A DNA stretch of 64,000 bases, from contig NZ_VAUA01000008.1 in NCBI RefSeq assembly GCF_005771405.1, forward strand, positions 186,001 to 250,000, read 5' to 3'. Every line of letters begins with the position of its first letter. Position 1 is the stretch's first letter. The stretch comes from Parasedimentitalea maritima (GTDB taxonomy: Bacteria > Pseudomonadota > Alphaproteobacteria > Rhodobacterales > Rhodobacteraceae). This document shows positions 1 to 14,500 of this stretch, piece by piece. Below the pieces are notes generated by a model, which saw only the letters and a program-made list of their open reading frames with translations, made no database searches and was not told where the DNA came from. The position numbers and the translations under genes were made by a program.

Positions 1-305
1 ACAAAGAAGATTACTTACTCCACAACCAGGTTAAATGGTGAAGCCAAGTTGCCGTATAAATTCACTTTTTGTAATTTCAGAGATGTCCTCTGGTGACATT
101 GGTTTCCAACTAATAAAACGGACGCCGTGGGCCGTTCCACTGTTTCGTAGAAGTGAAGCGGGCATCTCAGATTAGAAATGCCTTTTGCGCGAACTCGACT
201 GCAGCTGAACAAACGTAAACAACAACGCAAACCTCATGAAGTTGATGAAACCGAGATTGAGCAAATTTGATCATGGCAGCTATCCTAGATATGAGATCAT
301 TGTAT

Positions 306-323
306 GCACTATGTGTATAATGC
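306..323. promoter_or_regulatory. Candidate operator 1 overlapping a TATAAT -10 box
   Basis: The 18 bases form an imperfect palindrome of the form GCA-n-TAT-nnnn-ATA-n-TGC. A consensus -10 hexamer TATAAT lies inside it at 316-321, so a bound protein would block that promoter. A second near-copy lies 45 bp downstream. The next gene is a ribbon-helix-helix protein, a family that commonly represses its own promoter from paired palindromes. No good -35 box was seen at the right distance. Confidence 0.45.
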
Positions 324-350
324 GCTGCTCTTGAAGTCAAGGTACTAAAC

Positions 351-368
351 GCATTATGTGTATGATGA
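351..368. promoter_or_regulatory. Candidate operator 2
   Basis: This matches operator 1 in 14 of 18 positions, keeping GCA-n-TATGTGTAT-n-ATG, but its right arm is less palindromic. It starts 45 bp after operator 1 (just over four helical turns) and ends 23 bp before the ribbon-helix-helix start codon. An exact CTTGATA heptamer follows at 372-378. Confidence 0.4.
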
Positions 369-371
369 TTA

Positions 372-378
372 CTTGATA
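372..378 (+). other. Possible rolling-circle nick site (CTTGATA)
   Basis: CTTGATA is the core nick sequence of the phiX174 and pC194/pUB110 rolling-circle origins, cleaved between G and A. Here it lies just after two palindromes and a CTTGA/TCAAG inverted repeat (330-341), about 550 bp upstream of an HUH Rep gene. A heptamer is expected by chance about every 8 kb on two strands, and another copy occurs inside the integrase gene near 4748, so this is only a candidate. Confidence 0.2.
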
Positions 379-391
379 CTGGAGAAAACTC

Positions 392-580
392 TTGAAGAAG
401 CTGAGTGATAAACCGCCTACCAGATTGCAACTGCTAATTACTGAAGAAGAGCTGGCAGATGTAACTTCTTACCTTCATGAACGGAAAATATACGGCAAGT
501 CGAAAGCAATTCGCCATCTCATCAGGATTGGGCTCGACTGCGAGCACAAAGCTGGAAATTGGACGGGGAAAAGAGATTGA
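392..580 (+). CDS. Ribbon-helix-helix (CopG/Arc-like) DNA-binding protein
   Basis: The 62-residue protein has a beta-strand-like segment (TRLQLLITEEEL, residues 10-21) followed by two predicted helices, with the KSKAIRHLIRIGL pattern typical of the second helix of ribbon-helix-helix repressors. These proteins dimerise and insert a two-stranded sheet into the major groove of palindromic operators. The start is a TTG, supported by GGAG seven bases upstream. Two palindromes at 306-323 and 351-368 lie directly in front and suggest autoregulation. Downstream is the Rep gene, so it may act like the copy-control proteins of rolling-circle plasmids, although an antitoxin-like role is possible. No toxin partner is visible. 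Confidence 0.6.
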   Translation: MKKLSDKPPTRLQLLITEEELADVTSYLHERKIYGKSKAIRHLIRIGLDCEHKAGNWTGKRD

Positions 581-610
581 GAGTGTAAAAAGGTCAGCTG
601 TGGAAAATTC

Positions 611-673
611 GTACACACTGAAGGAAACGGTGTACTTAAGGAGGGAGTAATGGGGGGACGACGTCAGAAATAG
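611..673 (+). promoter_or_regulatory. Leader with hairpin, strong Shine-Dalgarno and a 7-codon ORF
   Basis: A GTACAC/GTGTAC inverted repeat (611-616 and 630-635) is followed by AAGGAGG at 638-644, one of the best Shine-Dalgarno sequences in the window, with an ATG at 650. The ORF it serves is only seven codons long (MGGRRQK, stop at 671-673). No longer frame uses this start. The Rep gene follows 250 bp later. Short leader ORFs and attenuating hairpins in front of rep genes are known in rolling-circle plasmids; that role here is inferred. Confidence 0.35.
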
Positions 674-925
674 TTTTCAGCTCAACTTCCCTTGTGGCCT
701 ATATTTCCGAATTTTGTAGACGCCAATTTCAAACCCCGAAGATTTTAAATCTTTGCGAAATCTTGCTCGCAATATGAAGTGAGAGCGAGGCGAAAGATTA
801 GTATTCAAAAAGTTCCAAAGAACCTCGCAGTCAATAATCTGATCGAGGTATCCGCTCCAAATTGATTGAGCCTTGTTTTGGGCTTCATGGACCAGGCCTC
901 GATAAAACAATCGAGGAAGTTGGTC

Positions 926-2332
926 ATGAGCCAAATTTACGTGGGTGATTCCTGCGAACAGGGAAGGACTGTCCGTAAGTCATCACCCAGTTCAGATAAA
1001 GAAGCGATCTCGATCAGTGGTCCTGAGATCATTGAAGGCGGAGTAAATCTCGGAAAAGTCGGTCTTGAGGCTGAGTACAAAGGTGGGTTTAAATTCTGCG
1101 CAGGTTCACTAAAGCATCGTGAGAAAACTCAAATCGTCATGGACATGGGTGAACGTGTAGGCATTTCACTAAAGAGAAGCGTCACCAAGAAATCGGCTCA
1201 GTTCTTGCTGGGTCTTCCTGAAGGGGAGTACTTGGGAATTGTGTATGATGCTCCAGCGCATAACAAACATCTTCCATCGACTGCTATAGTCGATTGTAAT
1301 CAAACAGCTGCGAATATTCTCTACTATTTAGAATATGGGATGGAGCATTCATCACAGCTAGCAACATTCACTTTTCCGCCCTTGACCTCCCGTGTCTCTG
1401 TAGAAAACCTTAGAGAATGTATCAAATTAGCTTTTGAACGCTACAACACAGTCAAGAAAAGACTGTCTGAATCAGGCCTGGGCGAATTTTTGTACTGCCA
1501 GTTAGAGATGACGTACAATGAAGATGATGGGTCATTCTATCCTCATTTTCACGTTTTCCTTGAAGTTGGAAAATACGATGCAAACCGCCTGCAGGTACTA
1601 GCGACCCTGGCGTCTAGTATGCCTTGGGTTGGAGGCAATGCGGGTATCCTGTTAAAGCAGGTTAAACCTGCTGATGCGATGCGTTTTGTCAAATATGGCA
1701 CTAAGCCAGGTGAAGCAGCTGTATCCATTGCCCAGGCTGGGCATGAAGAGGTGTTCAAGGCTTACTACGAAGCAACCAAAGGTGTTCGCCTAACGCGGAC
1801 TGAAAAGTCACTGAAAGCTTGTTTGGCTCAGCTAAAAACGGAGAACCGTCGAGCAAAAATAATGCCATGCAAAGAAACTGGGGAAGAGCATGTTGTGCTG
1901 GTTGAAAAGCGCCGCAGGGATCCTGAGGGCGAGCCTGAAAATGTTGAGGGCCTGGATCCGTTGCCGGAGGTTGGAAAACATGAACCAGTATCGTCAGGCA
2001 CAACAAATATCTTTTGCGGAAGCAGTTCAGCCTCTCCTTCGCCCTCTGGCAGGCTAATGGCGTTTGGGTTGGTGCAAAATTTTGATGAGGAGAACCTCCA
2101 TGAGGTGTTCGCCGTTGAGGGCAAGCGTAGCTTTTATCAAGCGAACAAAGCTGCGTGGGCGGCTTGGGAGAAGAATACAGGTGAACCGTTTGACCTTAAG
2201 AAGTTTTTAATCCCATTGGCACCTGACATACTTGCCGCGATCCGACGTCCAGAGTTTAAGAGTTACACGGTAATAGCAAGTTCTAATATTTTGAGAATTC
2301 TGAATATATTATATTTCGAATCTGAAGGCTAA
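926..2332 (+). CDS. HUH-type rolling-circle replication initiator (Rep_1-like)
   Basis: The protein of about 468 residues has the motif order of Rep_1 initiators: an N-terminal TFTFPPLTSRVSVENL strand region, QLEMTYNEDDGSFYPHFHVFLEV containing the metal-binding HUH pair (H207, H209), and AMRFVKYGTKPGE, where Y257 fits the nicking tyrosine. Such enzymes nick one strand of an origin and stay attached through a phosphotyrosine. The start chosen is ATG 926, preceded by GAGGAAG; an upstream TTG at 866 lacks a ribosome site. The last 130 residues are not recognisable, and the C-terminus is AT-rich and may be recombinant. In an integrated element the enzyme could serve replication after excision, or single-strand transfer. 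Confidence 0.75.
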   Translation: MSQIYVGDSCEQGRTVRKSSPSSDKEAISISGPEIIEGGVNLGKVGLEAEYKGGFKFCAGSLKHREKTQIVMDMGERVGISLKRSVTKKSAQFLLGLPEGEYLGIVYDAPAHNKHLPSTAIVDCNQTAANILYYLEYGMEHSSQLATFTFPPLTSRVSVENLRECIKLAFERYNTVKKRLSESGLGEFLYCQLEMTYNEDDGSFYPHFHVFLEVGKYDANRLQVLATLASSMPWVGGNAGILLKQVKPADAMRFVKYGTKPGEAAVSIAQAGHEEVFKAYYEATKGVRLTRTEKSLKACLAQLKTENRRAKIMPCKETGEEHVVLVEKRRRDPEGEPENVEGLDPLPEVGKHEPVSSGTTNIFCGSSSASPSPSGRLMAFGLVQNFDEENLHEVFAVEGKRSFYQANKAAWAAWEKNTGEPFDLKKFLIPLAPDILAAIRRPEFKSYTVIASSNILRILNILYFESEG

Positions 2333-2990
2333 CCATTTATCGAGTAAGGTGAAGCCAATATTTGTAAAAAGAAACCGATATTACCCAAAATCGTTCAAGT
2401 GTTCTAAAAAATGTGTTTTCCAGATCCTTGTTGCCTGTTGTCATTTTAAATGGCGGCAAGGTTTCTGTCAGTAAGTAATCACATTTATCCATTAGGTGTC
2501 CGCTGACAACATTTGTTCATTTGCTGCAGACTCGGAGTTCTGAACGAGTCTACTAGCCATGCTTAGCGTCCGGTTTCCGTCAATTATAGCTGAACATCAG
2601 GAAGATTGTTTGGTGATTCGCGTGAAAATCAGTTCGAACCAGTATGAAATCTGCACCTATTACGTGAAAGGGTGCACCATTCTACATTTTTCGAAATTTT
2701 TTTTGGGGGCTCATATCGCATTTAAACGCAAACTGAGTATACCCTCACTGCCAAACACCTTTATGTACCCGTTTTTTGAATTCGTTGCTCTCAGGCACGT
2801 TCTAGGCCGTTTTGAGGGGGTAATGGCTATCGCTTCTCCTGGCTCGTCAACTCCTAGGAGATCCGTGTTTGACCTCTGATTCAGCGGGTTGTTTGGTTCT
2901 CATTATTACGTAGAAACTGATGGTGAGCAGAGGCTGAAGTTACTCGGGTGAGTATCTAAGGTTTGGAAAATAAACGTAAAAGGCACTCAC
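2333..2990. other. Intergenic gap, no convincing gene
   Basis: About 660 bp separate the Rep and PrtN-like genes. One open frame (2559-2879, 106 codons) has no ribosome-binding site, reads through a T8 run followed by G5, and gives a protein without recognisable family features, so it is not called. The last 100 bp before 2991 are AT-rich and probably hold the promoter of the PrtN-like gene. Confidence 0.5.
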
Positions 2991-3251
2991 ATGCAGACTA
3001 TATTTATTCTGATGGGAAGGTATGACGCGCGGGTCATGGTTCCTCTTGAATCCGTTCGTCAGGACTTCTTTCCTGAACTCAGTTTGAACCTACTGAAAGC
3101 TAAAACGGATAGTGGTGAAATACCTCTAATAGTTACACGACTTGGATCTTCTCAAAAGTCAGGGCGAATGGTGCATGTTAATGACTTGGCCGATTTTCTT
3201 GATGGCCAAGTGAAAAAGGCCCGGACTGAAGCCCGTAGAAGGGCCGCTTAA
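2991..3251 (+). CDS. PrtN-like (pyocin activator) transcription factor
   Basis: The 86-residue protein matches the PrtN family along its whole length: an N-terminal TIFILMGRYDARVMVPLESV, then FFPEL, a central GEIPLIVTRL, SQKSGRMVHVNDLADFLD, and a basic C-terminus. PrtN of Pseudomonas aeruginosa activates pyocin genes by binding P-boxes; in other Proteobacteria relatives occur in prophages and islands, often near integrases. Here it lies between the Rep gene and the integrase, so it probably switches on excision or late genes of this element. AAAGG lies about eight bases before the ATG. DNA targets cannot be identified from this window. Confidence 0.75.
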   Translation: MQTIFILMGRYDARVMVPLESVRQDFFPELSLNLLKAKTDSGEIPLIVTRLGSSQKSGRMVHVNDLADFLDGQVKKARTEARRRAA

Positions 3252-3416
3252 TGAACTAAGCCAGGAAAACAGAAAAGTTCATCTAGCCACATTGGGTGCG
3301 GAAAACGGGAAACGTTAATCGGTTGCACCGAATCGAGGCCGAACCAGATTGATATTTTTTCAGGCTGAAAACCAATAACCAAGACTCCAAATAAAAGAGC
3401 AGAAAGAGGAAATAAA

Positions 3417-3731
3417 ATGAAAGTTGATTATATGGGGCGACCTTGCCGCGGTGATTTATGGGCGGCATTTGACAAGTTGATGGATATAGCCCGACAGAGC
3501 TCCAGTTCGTCGTTTGTTGCCAGAGATTTGTTGGTATTTTCACATAGAAGAGACAGTTTTGACCTTGGCGAAACCCACAAATTCGATACTTACAATCGTA
3601 AAGCAGCCATTGTTGTCATAGCGCATGCAATTAACGGTGGTGACGATAGGGAGTTAGGTCGTTTTTTGAAAGACAGAAAGCTGACACGTCTGAAGTGGCT
3701 CAAGGACCGCGTTTGGGTTGTAGACATGTAA
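3417..3731 (+). CDS. Unknown small protein of the dusA element
   Basis: The 104-residue protein is not recognised. It has a good ribosome site (AGAGGAAA before ATG 3417), a serine-rich stretch SSSSS near residues 29-33, and a basic C-terminal half (GRFLKDRKLTRLKWLKDR) that could bind nucleic acid. It follows the PrtN-like gene by 165 bp on the same strand and ends just before a strong hairpin at 3767-3793. An excisionase or accessory factor role would suit its position beside the integrase but is only a guess. Confidence 0.5.
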   Translation: MKVDYMGRPCRGDLWAAFDKLMDIARQSSSSSFVARDLLVFSHRRDSFDLGETHKFDTYNRKAAIVVIAHAINGGDDRELGRFLKDRKLTRLKWLKDRVWVVDM

Positions 3732-3766
3732 AGTACCACGAAAAATCAGTGAAAATATCTTTGTGA

Positions 3767-3793
3767 AACCTGCCGATTGTTTTTCGGCAGGTT
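3767..3793 (+). terminator. Hairpin downstream of the element's small ORF
   Basis: AACCTGCCGA and TCGGCAGGTT form a perfect 10-bp stem around a 7-base T-rich loop. There is no T-tract after it on the + strand. It lies between two convergent genes, so it may stop transcription from both sides or block readthrough into the integrase. Confidence 0.5.
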
Positions 3794-3946
3794 CCCGCCA
3801 TCAATTCCATCGAAGAGGGCTTTGAGGAAGGGCTGTTGTTCAATTCACGGATTTCAAACTGAGCTTTTTCCACTTCCCAAAGCGCTGCAGACAAACTGTA
3901 ACGCTTTGGGACGAATGTCGACAACGCTTATTTGTAGTGGTTTCGA

Positions 3947-5026
3947 CTAAGTGATTACTTCCATCCAAGCCCAATTTTCATAACGGTTTCCAACCTTTTT
4001 AAGATGTGAGTATCGTTGCAAGCTGGACCAGATTTTATGTCCAGTTACAGACATTGCTTGCGGCAAAGTGCGGCCAGTTTCGACCAACCATGATGCAGCT
4101 TCGTGGCGCAAATCGTGGAAGCGGAGATTCCGAATACCCAAGAACCTGCATGTTCCCGTAAATTGCCGACCAACGACATCTTTGTGAAATGGAAAGATCT
4201 GGTCGGTTAAACGCGGCATGCTCTCAATAATTCGAATGGCTTCTGGGGGCAGCTCGCAAACGACATCGTTTCCCTCTTTTTCACCAGGATCCTTCATGTT
4301 CCTAACCAGAATGGTTGCATGTTCTTGGGAGTAGTCATCCCACAGAATTCGAGTGATTTCGTCTTGTCGCCTTGCAGAAAAGATGGCGAACGGAACAATT
4401 TTGCTCATCGGGATAGCCCGAGTGTCTCGTGATTCACGCCTAACAAAGAAATCCATTAACGCATCCAGTTCTTCAGGAATGGGACGCCTTGTACGTTTTT
4501 TCGATTTCCCAGTAATGCCCAGAGTGCTGGTCGTTTCACGAGCTTCTTCGACGACCCGTCTGTCAAAAGGAATGGCGAATGCCGGCCTGGCTAGATTGAG
4601 GCATCCGGACAAATGACTCATGTAGTTGGCAGTGGTGGATGGCGAACGCCCAGCGGGTCCGTGTTCTCCTTCGGCAACTTGATTGGCAAATTCAACAAGA
4701 TCTGCTGGCCGAAGTGATGCTACTTCAAAGTCCGCGACGTCAAAGAGCTTGATAGTCTTCAGAACTTGCGACTTGGTCTTCCCCATCTGTTTTCGCTGAG
4801 TGTCGATAACTTTGTCGATCAGTTCACTTACAGTGGTTTGGATTTGGCGATTGGTTAGTTTTCCAGCGTCAAAGTCTTTTTCGACTTTCTTGATCCATGC
4901 GTTGGCAGCGGTTTTTCTTGAAAAAGTAGCTGACTTGGAGAAGACGACTTCACCTTCCTTCTTCTTGATAACCTGTGCCCGATGTTTGGTTCCGGATTTG
5001 CTCTTGCGCTCTACGATTGTGCCCAT
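3947..5026 (-). CDS. int: Tyrosine recombinase/integrase, dusA-associated type
   Basis: The 359-residue protein (from ATG at 5026) has the catalytic set of phage integrases: R220 in SARRQDEITR, K245, H304 and R307 in HDLRHEA, H330 in TGHKIW and nucleophile Y339 in LQRYSH. The N-terminal part suits an Arg/Lys-rich arm-binding domain, followed by a SAM-like core-binding region. The frame stays open for 31 more codons up to 5119, but that stretch consists of GTATGCCAA repeats and lacks a better start, so the shorter form is preferred. It is divergent from dusA with about 160 bp between the start codons, the arrangement seen for integrases that target the 5' end of dusA. Confidence 0.9.
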   Translation of the reverse strand: MGTIVERKSKSGTKHRAQVIKKKEGEVVFSKSATFSRKTAANAWIKKVEKDFDAGKLTNRQIQTTVSELIDKVIDTQRKQMGKTKSQVLKTIKLFDVADFEVASLRPADLVEFANQVAEGEHGPAGRSPSTTANYMSHLSGCLNLARPAFAIPFDRRVVEEARETTSTLGITGKSKKRTRRPIPEELDALMDFFVRRESRDTRAIPMSKIVPFAIFSARRQDEITRILWDDYSQEHATILVRNMKDPGEKEGNDVVCELPPEAIRIIESMPRLTDQIFPFHKDVVGRQFTGTCRFLGIRNLRFHDLRHEAASWLVETGRTLPQAMSVTGHKIWSSLQRYSHLKKVGNRYENWAWMEVIT

Positions 5027-5045
5027 TATTTCCCGTGCTTTGTTA

Positions 5046-5113
5046 TTGGCATACTGCGGATATAGGGTTCCGGTATGCCAAGCTCCAAGTGGGTATGCCA
5101 AAAAGTATGCCAA
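5046..5113. repeat. Cluster of GTATGCCAA repeats, likely integrase arm sites
   Basis: Four exact copies of a 9-base word lie within 68 bp: inverted TTGGCATAC at 5046-5054, and direct copies at 5073-5081, 5093-5101 and 5105-5113. They lie just upstream of the integrase start and about 75 bp before dusA. Tyrosine integrases bind short repeated arm-type sites flanking the crossover core, and binding here would also control int transcription. The arm-site role is inferred from position and repetition. Confidence 0.6.
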
Positions 5114-5188
5114 AAACACAAAACGTCGTAAAACCTAGCAAAATAAGCTCCAAACAAACCATTGTTTCGGTCAGCGGAGAGTGCCTAA

Positions 5189-6178
5189 ATGACAGATAAG
5201 CCCTTAATAACAAAGGCCGCACGCCTATCCGTAGCTCCCATGATGGACTGGACGGACCGGCATTGTCGTTTTATGCACCGACTGCTGAGCCATGAGACTT
5301 TGTTATACACTGAAATGGTGACAGCACCGGCTCTGGTCCGGGGAGGGGCGTTGCATCTCCTTGCCCACAGTCCTCAGGAACATCCAGTGGCGTTGCAACT
5401 TGGCGGGTCGGATCCGGATGAATTGGCCAAGGCTACGAAATTGGGGGCTGATACGGGCTATGGTGAGATAAACCTAAACTGCGGTTGCCCTTCAGACAGG
5501 GTGCAATCAGGGGCCTTTGGTGCGGTGTTGATGCAGAGCCCTAAATTGGTTGCGGATTGTGTCGCGGCGATGCGTGACGCTGCAGATGTCGAAGTGACGG
5601 TGAAGTGCCGCATTGGTGTGGATGAGCAAGAACCACGAGAGATATTGCCTGATTTTCTGGACAAAATTCAGGCAGCTGGCTGCCGCCGGGTGACAATCCA
5701 TGCCCGCAAGGCCTGGCTGCAGGGGTTAAGCCCCAAGGAAAACCGGGATGTTCCGCCTCTGGACTATGAGTTGGTTCATCAGATGAAGGCAGCATTCCCG
5801 GATCTGCATATTTCGATAAACGGCGGGATTTCGTCTTTGGACGAGGCCAAGGCACAATTGGACAGTGGCCTTGACGGGGTCATGATCGGTCGCTCCGCTT
5901 ATCATCAACCGGGCGATGTTCTGAGCACCGCAGATCCTGAAATTTTCGGGCAAGGCGAAGCCAGCGATCCTTTCGACGTTGCGCGTCAAATGTTGCCCTA
6001 TATTGAGGCACACTTGAATGGAGGCGGACGTTTGCATCAGGTGACCCGACATATGCTGGGGCTGTTTGCTGGCCGTCCAGGTGCGCGTCAGTGGCGTCGA
6101 ACCCTGTCTGAAGGTGCCCATCGAGATAGCGCAGGCCCCGAACTTGTCGAACATGCCCTTACCTCGGTTCTGGCGTGA
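5189..6178 (+). CDS. dusA: tRNA-dihydrouridine(20/20a) synthase DusA
   Basis: The 329-residue flavoprotein reduces uridines in the D-loop of tRNA. It shows SVAPMMDWTDRHCRFMHRLL at the N-terminus (FMN barrel start), the catalytic cysteine in NLNCGCPSDRVQSGAFGAVL, VKCRIGVD, and HARKAWLQGLSPKENR, the DusA signature, with normal length (E. coli DusA is about 330). The gene is intact, as expected if the integrated element rebuilt or kept the 5' end. The crossover site of such elements lies in the first part of the gene, around the APMMDWTDRH codons (about 5236-5265). Confidence 0.97.
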   Translation: MTDKPLITKAARLSVAPMMDWTDRHCRFMHRLLSHETLLYTEMVTAPALVRGGALHLLAHSPQEHPVALQLGGSDPDELAKATKLGADTGYGEINLNCGCPSDRVQSGAFGAVLMQSPKLVADCVAAMRDAADVEVTVKCRIGVDEQEPREILPDFLDKIQAAGCRRVTIHARKAWLQGLSPKENRDVPPLDYELVHQMKAAFPDLHISINGGISSLDEAKAQLDSGLDGVMIGRSAYHQPGDVLSTADPEIFGQGEASDPFDVARQMLPYIEAHLNGGGRLHQVTRHMLGLFAGRPGARQWRRTLSEGAHRDSAGPELVEHALTSVLA

Positions 6179-7711: not shown

Positions 7712-8185
7712 TTATCCGTTCTTCAAATGCGCCATACGATCCAACGCTCCTTGAAGAATATACGAGGCAGCCACGTGATCAATCACCTCAGCGCGACGTT
7801 TTCGAGATGTATCCGCCTCCAAAAGCACCCTTTCCGCAGCCACAGTGCTCAGCCGTTCGTCCCAGAACCCAATTGGAAGTTCTGTCAAGCGGCTGAGGTT
7901 GCGGGCGAATGCACGGGTCTTTTGGCAGCGCGGCCCTTCGGAGCCGTCCATGTTGCGTGGCAGTCCCAGCACAATCCCGCCAATACTTCGACCTTCGATG
8001 ATCTCCAGTAACCGGGCAGCATCAACGGTGAACTTTTTGCGCCGTACGGTCTCCAGTGGTGTTGCCACTGTTCCCATCGGATCTGAGACTGCAACGCCAA
8101 CGGTCTTGTCACCCAGATCCAGACCAATGAGCGCAGTGAAATCGGGCAAGGCGGTTGCAAACTGTTCAAAATCGTCGTGGATCAT
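7712..8185 (-). CDS. ruvX: Putative pre-16S rRNA nuclease RuvX (YqgF)
   Basis: The 157-residue RNase H-fold protein has IGLDLGDKTVGVAVSD (first acidic catalytic site, near residue 20), IVLGLPRNMDGSEGPR, and the C-terminal FWDERLSTVAAERVL and DHVAASYILQGALD motifs of YqgF. It is thought to act in 16S rRNA 5' maturation and was earlier proposed as a Holliday junction resolvase. Its start overlaps the end of ccmI by 4 bp, so the two are translationally coupled. Confidence 0.93.
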   Translation of the reverse strand: MIHDDFEQFATALPDFTALIGLDLGDKTVGVAVSDPMGTVATPLETVRRKKFTVDAARLLEIIEGRSIGGIVLGLPRNMDGSEGPRCQKTRAFARNLSRLTELPIGFWDERLSTVAAERVLLEADTSRKRRAEVIDHVAASYILQGALDRMAHLKNG

Positions 8186-11522: not shown

Positions 11523-14500
11523 GCACCCGTCTTGCCAATCAGGGCCGGTTGATCGACCGCTCCAAACCTATCGAGTTCACCTTTAACGGCAACCGGATGA
11601 CCGGTTATGAAGGCGACACCTTGGCCTCGGCTCTGCTGGCCAATGACCAGATGATGGTGGGCCGTTCCTTCAAATACCACCGCCCGCGCGGGCTTGTGGC
11701 CTCGGGTGCCGAAGAACCCAACGCTTTGGTTGGTCTGGGTAATGGCAACCGGTTTGAGCCCAACCAGCGGGTCACTACAACCGAGCTGTTCGCCGGCCTG
11801 TCGGCGCAGTCGCAAAACCACTGGCCTAGCCTTGAATTCGACGTGGGCGCAATCAACACGCACCTGTCGAGGTTCTTGCCCGCTGGCTTCTATTATAAAA
11901 TGTTCATGTATCCCAAAGCCTTCTGGAAACATGTCTATGAACCCATCATTCGCCACTCCGCAGGTCTGGGTAAGGCGCCGGATAAAGAACTAAAGGATGC
12001 CGACCAGTACGAGCATTTCTATTTCTTTGCCGATGTTGTGATCGTGGGGGGCGGTGTTGCAGGCCTTCAAGCGGCCAAGGCTGCTGCTGCAACCGGTGCT
12101 AAGGTGCTGGTGCTGGAGCAGACCAACACTTGGGGTGGCCGTGCCCCTGTTGATGGTGGCTCTATCGACGATACTGACCCTCAGGCCTGGATTGAAAAGA
12201 CGCTCGCCGAACTGGCTGCGATGGATAACGTGACCCTGCGCACCCGCTGCATGGGGTCGGGGGTTTATGACCACGGCTATGTGTTGGGCTATGAACGCTT
12301 GACCGACCACACCCCAGGAGAGGCTGGCCCGCGCCACCGCCTGTGGCGGATCCGCGCGAAGCAGATTGTGACGGCAACCGGTGCGATCGAGCGCCCACTG
12401 TCTTTTGCAGGCAATGACGTGCCGGGTGTGATGCTGGCAGGTGCCATGCGTGATTATGTTGTGAACTGGGGGGTTACCCCGGGCAAACGTGTTGTGGTCG
12501 TGACCAACAACGACGATGCTTATCGCACAGCTATCACACTGCATAAGGCGGGTGTCGAAGTAACCCGTATTCTGGACGCACGACCCGCTGGCGGTGGGGC
12601 CTTGATGGAGGAAGCGCGCCAGCTTGGCATTCGTGTCGAGCCCGGCCGGGCTATCGCCAAAGTCACAGGTGGTAAGCGTGTCGCCAAAGTTGCGATTTGC
12701 GCGCAGGATGGCGAAGGTGGTGCTCAGGAAGAAATAGCGGCAGATGCCGTAGCGATGTCAGGTGGTTGGTCACCTGTGGTGCACCTGTGGTCCCATTGCG
12801 GCGGCAAGTTGATCTGGGATGAGGCTCAGGCGCATTTCCGCCCCGATGCCTCGCGACCTCCATTGGGGGCCGATGGATCCGGTTTTGTTATCGCGGCTGG
12901 CTCTGCCAACGGTGCGATGGATTTGGGTGGCGTCATGGCAGATGCCAGTGCCGCTGGATCTGCTGCGGCCGAGGCTGCGGGCTTTGCGGCCAAAACAGGT
13001 ACCGCAGCGGTCGCCTCTGACAGCGACGAAGTTCCGATGCAGCCGATTTGGCTGATGCCCGCCAAGGCGGACATCAAGCTGAGAATGAAAACCTGGTTGG
13101 ATTACCAGAACGACGTCAAGGTGTCCGACGTTCAGCTGGCGGCGCGTGAAGGCTATGAAAGCGTCGAACACACCAAGCGTTACACCACGCTGGGTATGGC
13201 AACCGATCAGGGGAAACTTTCCAACATCAACGGTTTGGCGGTTCTGGCTGATACGTTGGGGTCGGAAATTCCACAGGTTGGAACCACTACGTTCCGTCCA
13301 CCCTACACACCGATTTCCATGGGTGCGATTGGTGGCGAGGCGCGTGGTGAGATTTTCCAGCCGGTCCGTAAAACGCCGATGCACGGCTGGCATGACGCCA
13401 ATGGGGCTGATTGGGAACCGGTCGGTCACTGGCGCCGCGCCTATGCTTTTGTCCGCTCAAACGAAAGCGTCGAAGAGGCCGTGGCACGTGAGGTGACCAA
13501 CACCCGCAAGAACCTGGGTCTGCTGGATGCCTCTACCCTTGGCAAGCTGATTGTCAAAGGTGCCGATGCCGGCCGGTTTATGGACATGATGTATACCAAC
13601 ATGATGTCCAACCTGAAGGTCGGCAAATGCCGCTATGGCCTGATGTGTTCTGAAAACGGATTTCTGATCGATGACGGCGTTGTGGCCCGCATCGATGAGG
13701 ATACCTGGCTGTGCCACACCACCACCGGCGGCGCCGAGCGTATTCACGGCCACATGGAAGAGTGGCTGCAGACAGAATGGTGGGACTGGAAAGTCTATGT
13801 TGCCAATGTCACCGAGCAACTGGCACAGGTTGCTGTGGTTGGTCCCAACGCCCGTAAGGTGCTGGAGAAACTGGGCGGCATGGATGTCAGCAAAGAAGCA
13901 CTGCCGTTTATGGAATGGCGGGATGGCAAAATCGGTGAGTTCGACTGCCGCGCTTACCGGATCTCTTTCTCGGGTGAGCTGTCTTACGAGATCGCAGTTC
14001 CTGCCAGTCAGGGCATGGCGTTCTGGACGGCGCTTCTGGAGGCAGGACAAGAGTTCGGCGTGATGCCTTATGGCACCGAATGCCTGCACATCCTGCGGGC
14101 CGAGAAGGGCTTTATCATGATTGGTGATGAAACCGACGGTACCGTGATCCCACAGGATCTGGGGTTGAGCTGGGCGATCTCCAAGAAAAAGGAAGACTTC
14201 CTTGGTAAGCGGGCACAATTACGCTCGCACATGGCGGATCCGGACCGTTGGCAATTGGTGGGGCTGGAAACCGTAGACGGATCGGTTCTGCCAGACGGAG
14301 CTTATGCAACCGGCAATGGTCTCAATGCCAATGGGCAACGCAACGTAATTGGCAGGGTGACCTCAACTTACCATTCACCGACCATGAACAAAGGCATCGC
14401 CATGGGGTTGGTGCACAACGGGCGCAAGCGCACAGACGAAGTGATTGAGTTCCCGGGCACCGACGGCACGATTTACAAGGCCAAGATCGTTGATCAGGTT

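What the first reader, a model, noticed from the sequence alone, without database searches (positions are those of the whole stretch)
1..5188. dusA-integrated element carrying an HUH Rep, an RHH protein and a PrtN-like activator
Seen: catalytic integrase next to intact dusA, HUH Rep with H207/H209/Y257, PrtN-like and RHH genes, no phage structural genes. Known: dusA 5' end is an integration hot spot. Inferred: a small satellite or integrated rolling-circle plasmid with its own on/off switch, a gene set that I do not know as a described type. The left end lies outside the window.
Basis: partly seen in the sequence, partly recalled or inferred. Interest (0 to 1): 0.72.

Follow-up and report, generated by a model that had tools for sequence, protein, structure and literature searches.

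The report
Integrated rolling-circle island at dusA
A 16-kb DNA island sits inside a tRNA-modification gene of a bacterium of the Rhodobacteraceae and carries what looks like a plasmid-type replication unit and an anti-phage system; relatives of that unit occur in related bacteria with other insertion enzymes.

Summary
A second dusA 5' end (108 bp, 94% identical) lies 16,041 bp upstream, so this is a whole ~16-kb dusA island whose right third is in the window. The left part carries two protease-like genes, a serine resolvase, Gabija (GajB in two reading frames) and a Lon-like AAA+ ATPase. Pfam scans of 15 element proteins showed no phage structural, packaging, relaxase or T4SS family. The 'PrtN activator' belongs to the RdfN family, shown elsewhere to be the excision factor of a dusA island (PMC8409611). 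The Rep is a divergent relative of Rep_1 rolling-circle initiators. I found 7 relatives, all Rhodobacterales: RHH gene just upstream in 7 of 8, AAA+ in 7 of 8, and a non-coding repeat block (candidate origin) before Rep in 7 of 8. The module occurs with different integrases and sites: dusA twice (own and Ruegeria, with the same RdfN and DUF7673-like genes), tRNA-Leu, tRNA-Phe, tRNA-Arg. Best reading: an integrative rolling-circle replicon with defence cargo. 'Satellite' is not supported. Replication and transfer are inferred.

The parts
307..322 (+). operator-like box 1 upstream of the RHH gene
   Evidence: direct repeat; pattern CAYWATGTGTATRATG, drawn from these boxes themselves: at up to 3 mismatches L004 has 3 matches, expected 0.65, 3 of 200 shuffles reach 3; similar boxes before RHH genes of relatives
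352..367 (+). operator-like box 2
   Evidence: as box 1
392..580 (+). small RHH (CopG/Arc-like) protein, likely repressor of the Rep operon; TTG start
   Evidence: phrog_4738 transcriptional repressor E 2.2e-4; relatives just upstream of Rep in 7 of 8 elements
600..657 (+). conserved non-coding block: two ~15-bp direct repeats (600-614, 621-635; spacing 21) then GGAGTAATGGGGGG (644-657); candidate double-strand origin
   Evidence: block seen in 7 of 8 (not L126); best second repeat at 21-22 bp in 7 of 7, but against shuffles the own copy is weak, p 0.24; window 597-685 keeps 77% DNA identity in G1281 although its Rep is 29-33% identical
926..2332 (+). HUH rolling-circle initiator Rep, 468 aa (H207, H209, Y257)
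   Evidence: Rep_1 E 1.2e-5, below cut-off; profile-profile 97.5%, E 8e-12 with five Rep_1 proteins; 47 invariant columns in 8 relatives
2559..2879 (+). 106-aa ORF, doubtful
   Evidence: no convincing family match; no blastp hit to it in the related loci; may not be a gene
2991..3251 (+). RdfN/PrtN-family recombination directionality factor
   Evidence: PF11112 4.7e-23; phrog_1300 excisionase 4e-24; family function from PMC8409611
3417..3731 (+). DUF7673-like protein of the dusA recombination module
   Evidence: DUF7673 E 7.3e-4, below cut-off; 60% and 67% identical copies beside the dusA integrases of G779 and Ruegeria
3947..5032 (-). dusA-type tyrosine integrase (ORF open to 5119)
   Evidence: Phage_integrase 1.3e-11; matches in 167 phage records, 116 of them over at least 80% of it; 29 of 248 family genomes, own included, at E<=1e-40
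5151..5258 (+). attR: repeat shared with attL 16,041 bp upstream (G000:C22:175110-175217, outside the window)
   Evidence: 94.4% over 108 bp, E 1.5e-36
5189..6178 (+). dusA, intact; its 5' end is supplied by the element
   Evidence: Pfam Dus 1.5e-81; second dusA 5' end at attL
1..5258 (.). right third of the ~16.0-kb element; the rest (G000:C22:175218-186000) holds 174-aa, trypsin-like, zincin-like and 248-aa genes, serine resolvase, GajA, GajB (two frames) and a Lon-like AAA+ ATPase

Best explanation
It is a dusA-specific integrative genomic island of ~16 kb that keeps a plasmid-type rolling-circle replicon. Int and RdfN excise it as a circle (inferred from the families). The RHH protein represses the RHH-Rep operon through the paired upstream boxes (inferred). 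When derepressed, Rep nicks a double-strand origin, most likely the repeat block at 600-657, and replicates the excised circle by the rolling-circle mode; the serine resolvase resolves multimers and the AAA+ ATPase assists (inferred, the last with no direct clue). The circle re-enters a dusA attB, and the island's own dusA 5' end restores the gene. Cargo (Gabija, proteases) pays for carriage. The replicon module is exchangeable between integrase modules. Transfer between cells would use a helper (conjugation or transduction); Rep may double as relaxase (speculative).
For: Both ends found. Integrase and RdfN family, RdfN tested as the excision factor of a dusA island (PMC8409611). RHH just upstream in 7 of 8, AAA+ in 7 of 8, block in 7 of 8, resolvase in 4 of 8. 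Ruegeria arenilitoris has a dusA island with the same seven kinds of gene (int 44%, RdfN 39%, DUF7673-like 67%, RHH 53%, resolvase 47% to own; Rep 42% to own and 46% to G1284; AAA+ of the G1281 type, 52%) and its own second dusA 5' copy, 38 bp at 79%. Other delimited elements: G1284 13.6 kb, L124 15.3 kb (tRNA-Leu), G1281 26.1 kb (tRNA-Phe), each with an 18-bp repeat. The Rep tree puts the two dusA-borne Reps apart, which fits exchange of integrase modules.
Against: No circular form, copy number or replication was observed. Rep is below Pfam's cut-off; PDB fold search gave no match at E<=0.001 and sequence search of PDB nothing relevant; Y257 lies in a low-confidence stretch of the model. None of 30 fetched stretches around related integrases (29 sites, 19 with dusA in the stretch, several cut by contig ends) showed a Rep, so dusA islands commonly do without it. 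The sister dusA element of G038 has resolvase and AAA+ but no Rep in its broken assembly. The origin block has no conserved hairpin and its repeat is weak against shuffles in 4 of 7 copies, own included. L126 lacks the block; in G1281 the RHH gene is 8.6 kb from Rep. Resolvase is absent from 4 of 8 (two on incomplete stretches). The own and the G1281-type AAA+ are only 29% identical over 221 aa.
Confidence: 0.66

Rival explanations
1. A non-canonical integrative mobilizable element: Rep acts mainly as a relaxase that nicks an oriT (the conserved block) for transfer through another element's conjugation machine.
For: RCR-initiator-type relaxases are common in streptococcal IMEs, and Rep_1 proteins were reported to serve in mobilization of three Firmicute plasmids by ICEBs1 (PMC5704250 passages). 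The host genome has two VirB4-family genes elsewhere.
Against: No coupling protein or known relaxase family hit in the element; an RHH-controlled operon and a resolvase fit a replicon as well or better.
Confidence: 0.2
2. A decaying island: an old dusA integrase with a stranded plasmid replication gene, no longer mobile.
For: GajB is split over two frames; a DNA-level remnant of another int 5' end at attL (not recognisable at protein level) suggests decay of an earlier element here; Rep is rare (own genome only in scans of 390, 398 and 380 genomes).
Against: Int, RdfN, Rep, resolvase and AAA+ are open frames and both att copies are present; relatives in several genera keep the same residues and block.
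Confidence: 0.12
3. A phage satellite (PICI/P4-like) packaged by a helper phage.
For: ~16 kb, int plus excision factor plus Rep, defence cargo; related integrases are common in phages.
Against: No packaging, terminase or capsid-size gene seen; no Rep relative in viral contigs or phages.
Confidence: 0.07

Closest known systems
dusA-specific genomic islands with DAI integrase (Farrugia et al. 2015, PMC4482086; passages and sections 15-16 read)
   Same: site in the 5' end of dusA, imperfect attL/attR, element supplies the new dusA 5' end, PrtN-family gene (found in 60 of 94 islands there)
   Different: carries an HUH Rep with RHH, candidate origin, AAA+ ATPase and resolvase; no such module is described in the parts read (DNA replication is named among cargo functions, without detail)
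SGI1-like dusA islands of Vibrio, IMEVchUSA3 (PMC8409611; passages read)
   Same: dusA integrase and RdfN
   Different: no MpsA/MpsB, TraG/TraN-type gene seen here (oriT and AcaCD sites not looked for); IMEVchUSA3 has no known Rep
Rep_1 rolling-circle plasmids, incl. RepW plasmids of Rhodobacterales (PMC9025767; passages read)
   Same: HUH plus Y..K catalytic core; plasmid-type replication function expected
   Different: RepW plasmids are small circles (25 known, 2.2-6.8 kb, median 2.6 kb); here the Rep is 468 aa, integrated, below the Rep_1 cut-off; it was not compared with RepW directly
SGI1 (IncC-dependent replicating island; from passages)
   Same: an integrative element that replicates when excised
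   Different: SGI1 uses an iteron/theta-type Rep_3 initiator, not an HUH Rep
Gabija defence (GajAB)
   Same: GajA E 5e-189, GajB E 2.5e-179 and 1.4e-50 in two pieces
   Different: cargo only; the GajB reading frame is split

Membership tests
dusA-specific genomic island | tyrosine integrase next to the 5' end of dusA | tested here: met
dusA-specific genomic island | imperfect direct repeats, with a second dusA 5' end at the far end | tested here: met
   108 bp, 94.4%, 16,041 bp apart
dusA-specific genomic island | RdfN/PrtN-family gene (usual, not obligatory) | tested here: met
   PF11112 4.7e-23
dusA-specific genomic island | excision as a circle | not testable with these tools
   needs PCR or reads
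Rep_1 (PF01446) rolling-circle initiators | score over Pfam's gathering cut-off | tested here: not met
   25.4 vs 33.2 bits; 5 of 8 members match at E<=0.1
Rep_1 (PF01446) rolling-circle initiators | HUH motif followed by Y..K, alignable with plasmid Rep_1 proteins | tested here: met
   hhalign 97.5%, E 8e-12, 230 columns, against 5 proteins
Rep_1 (PF01446) rolling-circle initiators | pC194-type nick motif (CTTGATA, recalled, from no call) near rep | tested here: inconclusive
   one copy at window 372-378; 4 in L004 vs 2.1 expected, 32 of 200 shuffles as many
RepW plasmid type | homology to RepW replicases | not tested
   RepW records were not identified (25 of 1375 records shown)
phage satellite | packaging or capsid-remodelling genes | tested here: not met
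   Pfam scan of 15 element proteins; PHROGs only on the 6 window ORFs
ICE / canonical IME | relaxase, coupling protein or T4SS gene in the element | tested here: not met
   no such family hit (NCBIfam on 8 proteins); oriT not tested
non-canonical IME with RCR-type relaxase | Rep-dependent mobilization | not testable with these tools
   needs mating assays
Gabija | adjacent GajA and GajB | tested here: inconclusive
   GajA whole; GajB in two frames covering profile 4-506 and 505-665

The most novel reading that the evidence does not exclude
A hitherto undescribed family of integrative rolling-circle replicons in Rhodobacterales: one conserved cassette (operator pair, RHH, repeat-type origin, long HUH Rep, AAA+ partner, sometimes a resolvase) that swaps integrases and attachment sites and serves as a vehicle for anti-phage systems, with Rep possibly also acting as relaxase for helper-driven transfer.
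Probability: 0.45. Interest if true: 0.72.

Novelty: new variant of a known kind. Interest (0 to 1): 0.6.

Why it matters
How non-phage dusA islands persist after excision and move is open; PMC8409611 (passages) notes that IMEVchUSA3 rises to about 3 copies without a known initiator. A dusA island with its own rolling-circle cassette, found with the same kind of excision module in two genera and with other integrases at tRNA genes, makes replication after excision directly testable and links rolling-circle plasmids to chromosomal defence islands.

Tried and rejected
Searches with the single Rep found nothing beyond its own genome: 1 of 390 order genomes, 1 of 398 phylum genomes, 0 in genome contigs, viral contigs and phages. 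Plasmids gave 12 records at 25-31% identity, 11 Firmicute and 1 uncultured. Profile A3 in 380 order genomes: own only. These genome samples overlap.

Rep_1 family search in 385 class genomes: 5 hits; their loci showed no integrase, PrtN or RHH match to this element. G1281 Rep against plasmids: none. AAA+ against plasmids: 128 records, none over 80% of the query; the two best (Limimaricola plasmids, 49%) have no annotated Rep beside them. Block pattern in viral contigs: 0. To reach RepW I searched plasmids with another alphaproteobacterial Rep_1; no Rhodobacterales record was among the 25 of 1375 shown.

pC194-like nick motif: not above chance. No conserved hairpin in the block. Rfam: one sub-threshold snoRNA-type match, taken as chance. 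Repeat against shuffles: own p 0.24, L123 0.26, L124 0.08, G1281 0.36; G1284 0.0005, L122 and L125 0 of 2000. The repeat at 21-22 bp in 7 of 7 is not seven independent observations, since the sequences share ancestry.

I first took the Gabija-like pair of G1284 for part of its element; the 18-bp repeats put it outside. No tRNA gene was found at the G1284 ends. Integrases for L122 and L123 were not recognised beside the Rep. Foldseek against PDB: nothing significant. The AlphaFold model is of medium confidence (pLDDT 66.6). The label-shuffle test in the tree is uninformative with two rows (500 of 500 as low).
Full report
What is there. The window is G000:C22:186001-250000, and the genome search found a second place matching the int-dusA junction 16 kb to the left. 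Fetched and compared, it holds 108 bp at 94.4% identity with window 5151-5258, that is the dusA start and its first ~23 codons. The pair is 16,041 bp apart. Beyond the left copy lie ordinary-looking genes, recognised by eye and not by a scan: an RTX-type protein, a TRAP-type transporter, acs and adk; the last three kinds are also upstream of dusA in the same-genus genome G162 (84-97% for the matches). GC per 1-kb bin is 0.415-0.487 within the island, 0.524 left of it, 0.532 and 0.567 at and beyond its right end.

Content of the island, left to right: 174-aa protein, trypsin-like protease (Trypsin_2 2.1e-13), zincin-like protease (Astacin 4.7e-4, below cut-off), 248-aa protein, all on minus; serine resolvase (2.8e-33); GajA (5e-189); GajB in two frames (2.5e-179 and 1.4e-50 for adjoining parts of one profile); Lon-like AAA+ ATPase; then in the window the RHH gene, Rep, a doubtful 106-aa ORF, RdfN, a DUF7673-like gene and the integrase. 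Pfam scans of these 15 products (16 with dusA) show no phage structural, packaging, relaxase or T4SS family. PHROGs was run only on six window ORFs.

The PrtN-like gene. Farrugia et al. (PMC4482086; passages and sections 15 and 16 read) found a prtN homologue in 60 of 94 dusA islands, role unknown. PMC8409611 (passages read) reports that the PrtN-domain protein RdfN is required for excision of a dusA island and that no other element protein besides Int is needed. In phages a PrtN-family gene sits by the related integrase (compare JBD90 and BcepIL02 coordinates). I therefore read 2991-3251 as the excision factor.

The Rep. From the ATG at 926 it is 468 aa with H207, H209, Y257. Pfam Rep_1 is hit at 1.2e-5 but below the cut-off; 5 of 8 family members match it at E<=0.1. 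A family profile aligned to five plasmid and proteobacterial Rep_1 proteins gives 97.5% probability, E 8e-12, with the HUH and the Y..K in register. The AlphaFold model (pLDDT 66.6 overall, 85-94 in residues 131-230, below 50 at 257-260) matched 25 viral models at E<=0.001, two of them named microvirus replication initiators and the rest unnamed, and no PDB chain at E<=0.001.

Relatives. The nearest came from the 8 genomes of the genus: G1284 (71%) and G1281 (33%) besides own. The profile of these three found Roseobacter MAG L122 (55%), Shimia gijangensis L123 (46%), Roseobacter MAG L124 (41%), Ruegeria arenilitoris L125 (42%) and Pelagivirga sediminicola L126 (26%), best segments. That makes 8 distinct Reps, all from Rhodobacterales by record title or kinship. 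The scan uses two short motifs, so more may exist; in 380 order genomes the family profile found only the own genome.

The module. By tblastn on each element or held stretch: RHH in 8 of 8 (just upstream of Rep in 7; in G1281 8.6 kb away), AAA+ in 7 of 8 (not in the short L122 stretch), resolvase in 4 of 8 (own, G1284, L125, L126). Some of these queries come from the elements themselves. The AAA+ proteins are of two types, 29% identical over 221 aa: own and G1284 have one, G1281, L123, L124, L125 and L126 match the other best. The non-coding stretch between RHH and Rep holds a block present in 7 of 8 (not L126): GTGGAA-type repeats 21-22 bp apart, then GGAGTAATGGGGGG or a looser form. In G1281 it keeps 77% DNA identity although the Rep is about 30% identical. 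I take it as the best candidate for the rolling-circle origin; a shared promoter or an oriT are not excluded.

Different integrases. Own and Ruegeria: dusA integrase, RdfN and DUF7673-like gene; in Ruegeria the second dusA copy (14 of 14 residues; 38 bp at 79%) lies 20.6 kb from the intact gene's 5' end. G1284: P4-type integrase (Arm-DNA-bind_3), HTH_17 excisionase-like gene, 18-bp repeats, 13.6 kb, no tRNA found. L124: P4-type integrase at tRNA-Leu, 18-bp repeats, 15.3 kb. G1281: another tyrosine recombinase (DUF6538 plus a weak Phage_integrase match), tRNA-Phe repeat, 26.1 kb. L126: integrase beside tRNA-Arg, far end not delimited. L122 and L123: tRNA-Leu beside the element, integrase not recognised. 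A tree of the 8 Reps places the two dusA-borne Reps in different supported groups (2 changes forced; L126 and G1281 are long branches). This fits exchange of integrase modules.

Related dusA integrases without the module. Of 30 stretches fetched around related integrases of the family (29 sites; 19 with dusA in the stretch; several cut by contig ends), 0 showed a Rep match, 9 a PrtN-family match and 1 (G779) the DUF7673-like gene.

Cargo. Defence or candidate defence genes: own Gabija; G1284 PDC-M03A/B; G1281 type II methyltransferase and a weaker REase-type match; Ruegeria cytosine methyltransferase, Vsr and MzaB; Pelagivirga HsdR, in an element not delimited on that side. PADLOC was not run on L122, L123, L124 or L126; the L124 ORFs that I saw look mainly like IS and signalling proteins.

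Same site in the genus. Of 8 genomes, own, G038, G360 and G1282 have this integrase edge at dusA; G1284 has another integrase there; G162, G1281 and G1283 show only dusA similarity. G038 shares the left flank (RTX protein 97%), resolvase (87%) and AAA+ (86%) but has other cargo and no Rep in its assembly, whose contigs end inside the element.

How it likely works, and what is shown. Shown by sequence: ends, gene content, conserved catalytic residues, shared module, different integrases. From the literature: RdfN drives excision of a dusA island. Inferred: RHH repression, Rep-driven rolling-circle replication from the block, resolvase for multimers, AAA+ help, transfer through a helper. The host genome has two VirB4-family genes, so conjugative help is possible. 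[quoted passage not shown]

Novelty. Seven paper searches (listings) and five papers opened (PMC4482086 passages and two sections; PMC8409611, PMC9025767, PMC5704250 and PMC13386836 passages only) gave no description of this cassette; most subscription literature is not covered. Each part is of a known kind; the combination, its recurrence and the exchange of integrases look new. I file it as a new variant of a known kind.

Noticed in passing
L004 8172-9773 and 9760-10290 (G000:C22, left of the window): GajB lies in two overlapping reading frames that match adjoining parts of one GajB profile; a true frameshift, a sequencing error or a programmed event cannot be told apart here.
   Followed up: partly
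L004 ~900-1110 and L113 ~7840-8170: Upstream of attL the DNA resembles the 5' end and upstream region of the integrase (82% over 319 bp with the dusA start), though tblastn with the integrase finds nothing there; a similar stretch is at the same place in G038. It may be the scar of an earlier dusA element.
   Followed up: partly
L004 11790-11905 (minus strand), L111 ~13470-13560 (minus strand): A conserved tRNA-like stretch (GGAGGGC...GCCCTCC, GTTCGAGTC arm, CCA) lies just upstream of the AAA+ gene in own and G1284; ARAGORN misses it at default and calls it at a relaxed threshold with different anticodons.
   Followed up: partly
window 3417-3731; L046 16967-17272; Ruegeria: The DUF7673-like protein beside dusA integrases is more conserved in Ruegeria (67%) than the integrase itself (44%), which suggests a role in the recombination or its control.
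   Followed up: no
L004 1514-4952: Four-gene minus-strand cluster: trypsin-like protease, zincin-like protease and two proteins without a convincing family; N-termini look export-like by eye, function unknown.
   Followed up: no
L122 7467-7527: The operator region of the L122 RHH gene holds a run of TATAGTGTG-type 9-bp repeats (overlapping matches), more boxes than in the other members shown.
   Followed up: no
L110 9614-13308 (G1284:C112): An OLD-nuclease plus UvrD-helicase pair (Gabija-like) lies near, but outside, the delimited G1284 element.
   Followed up: partly
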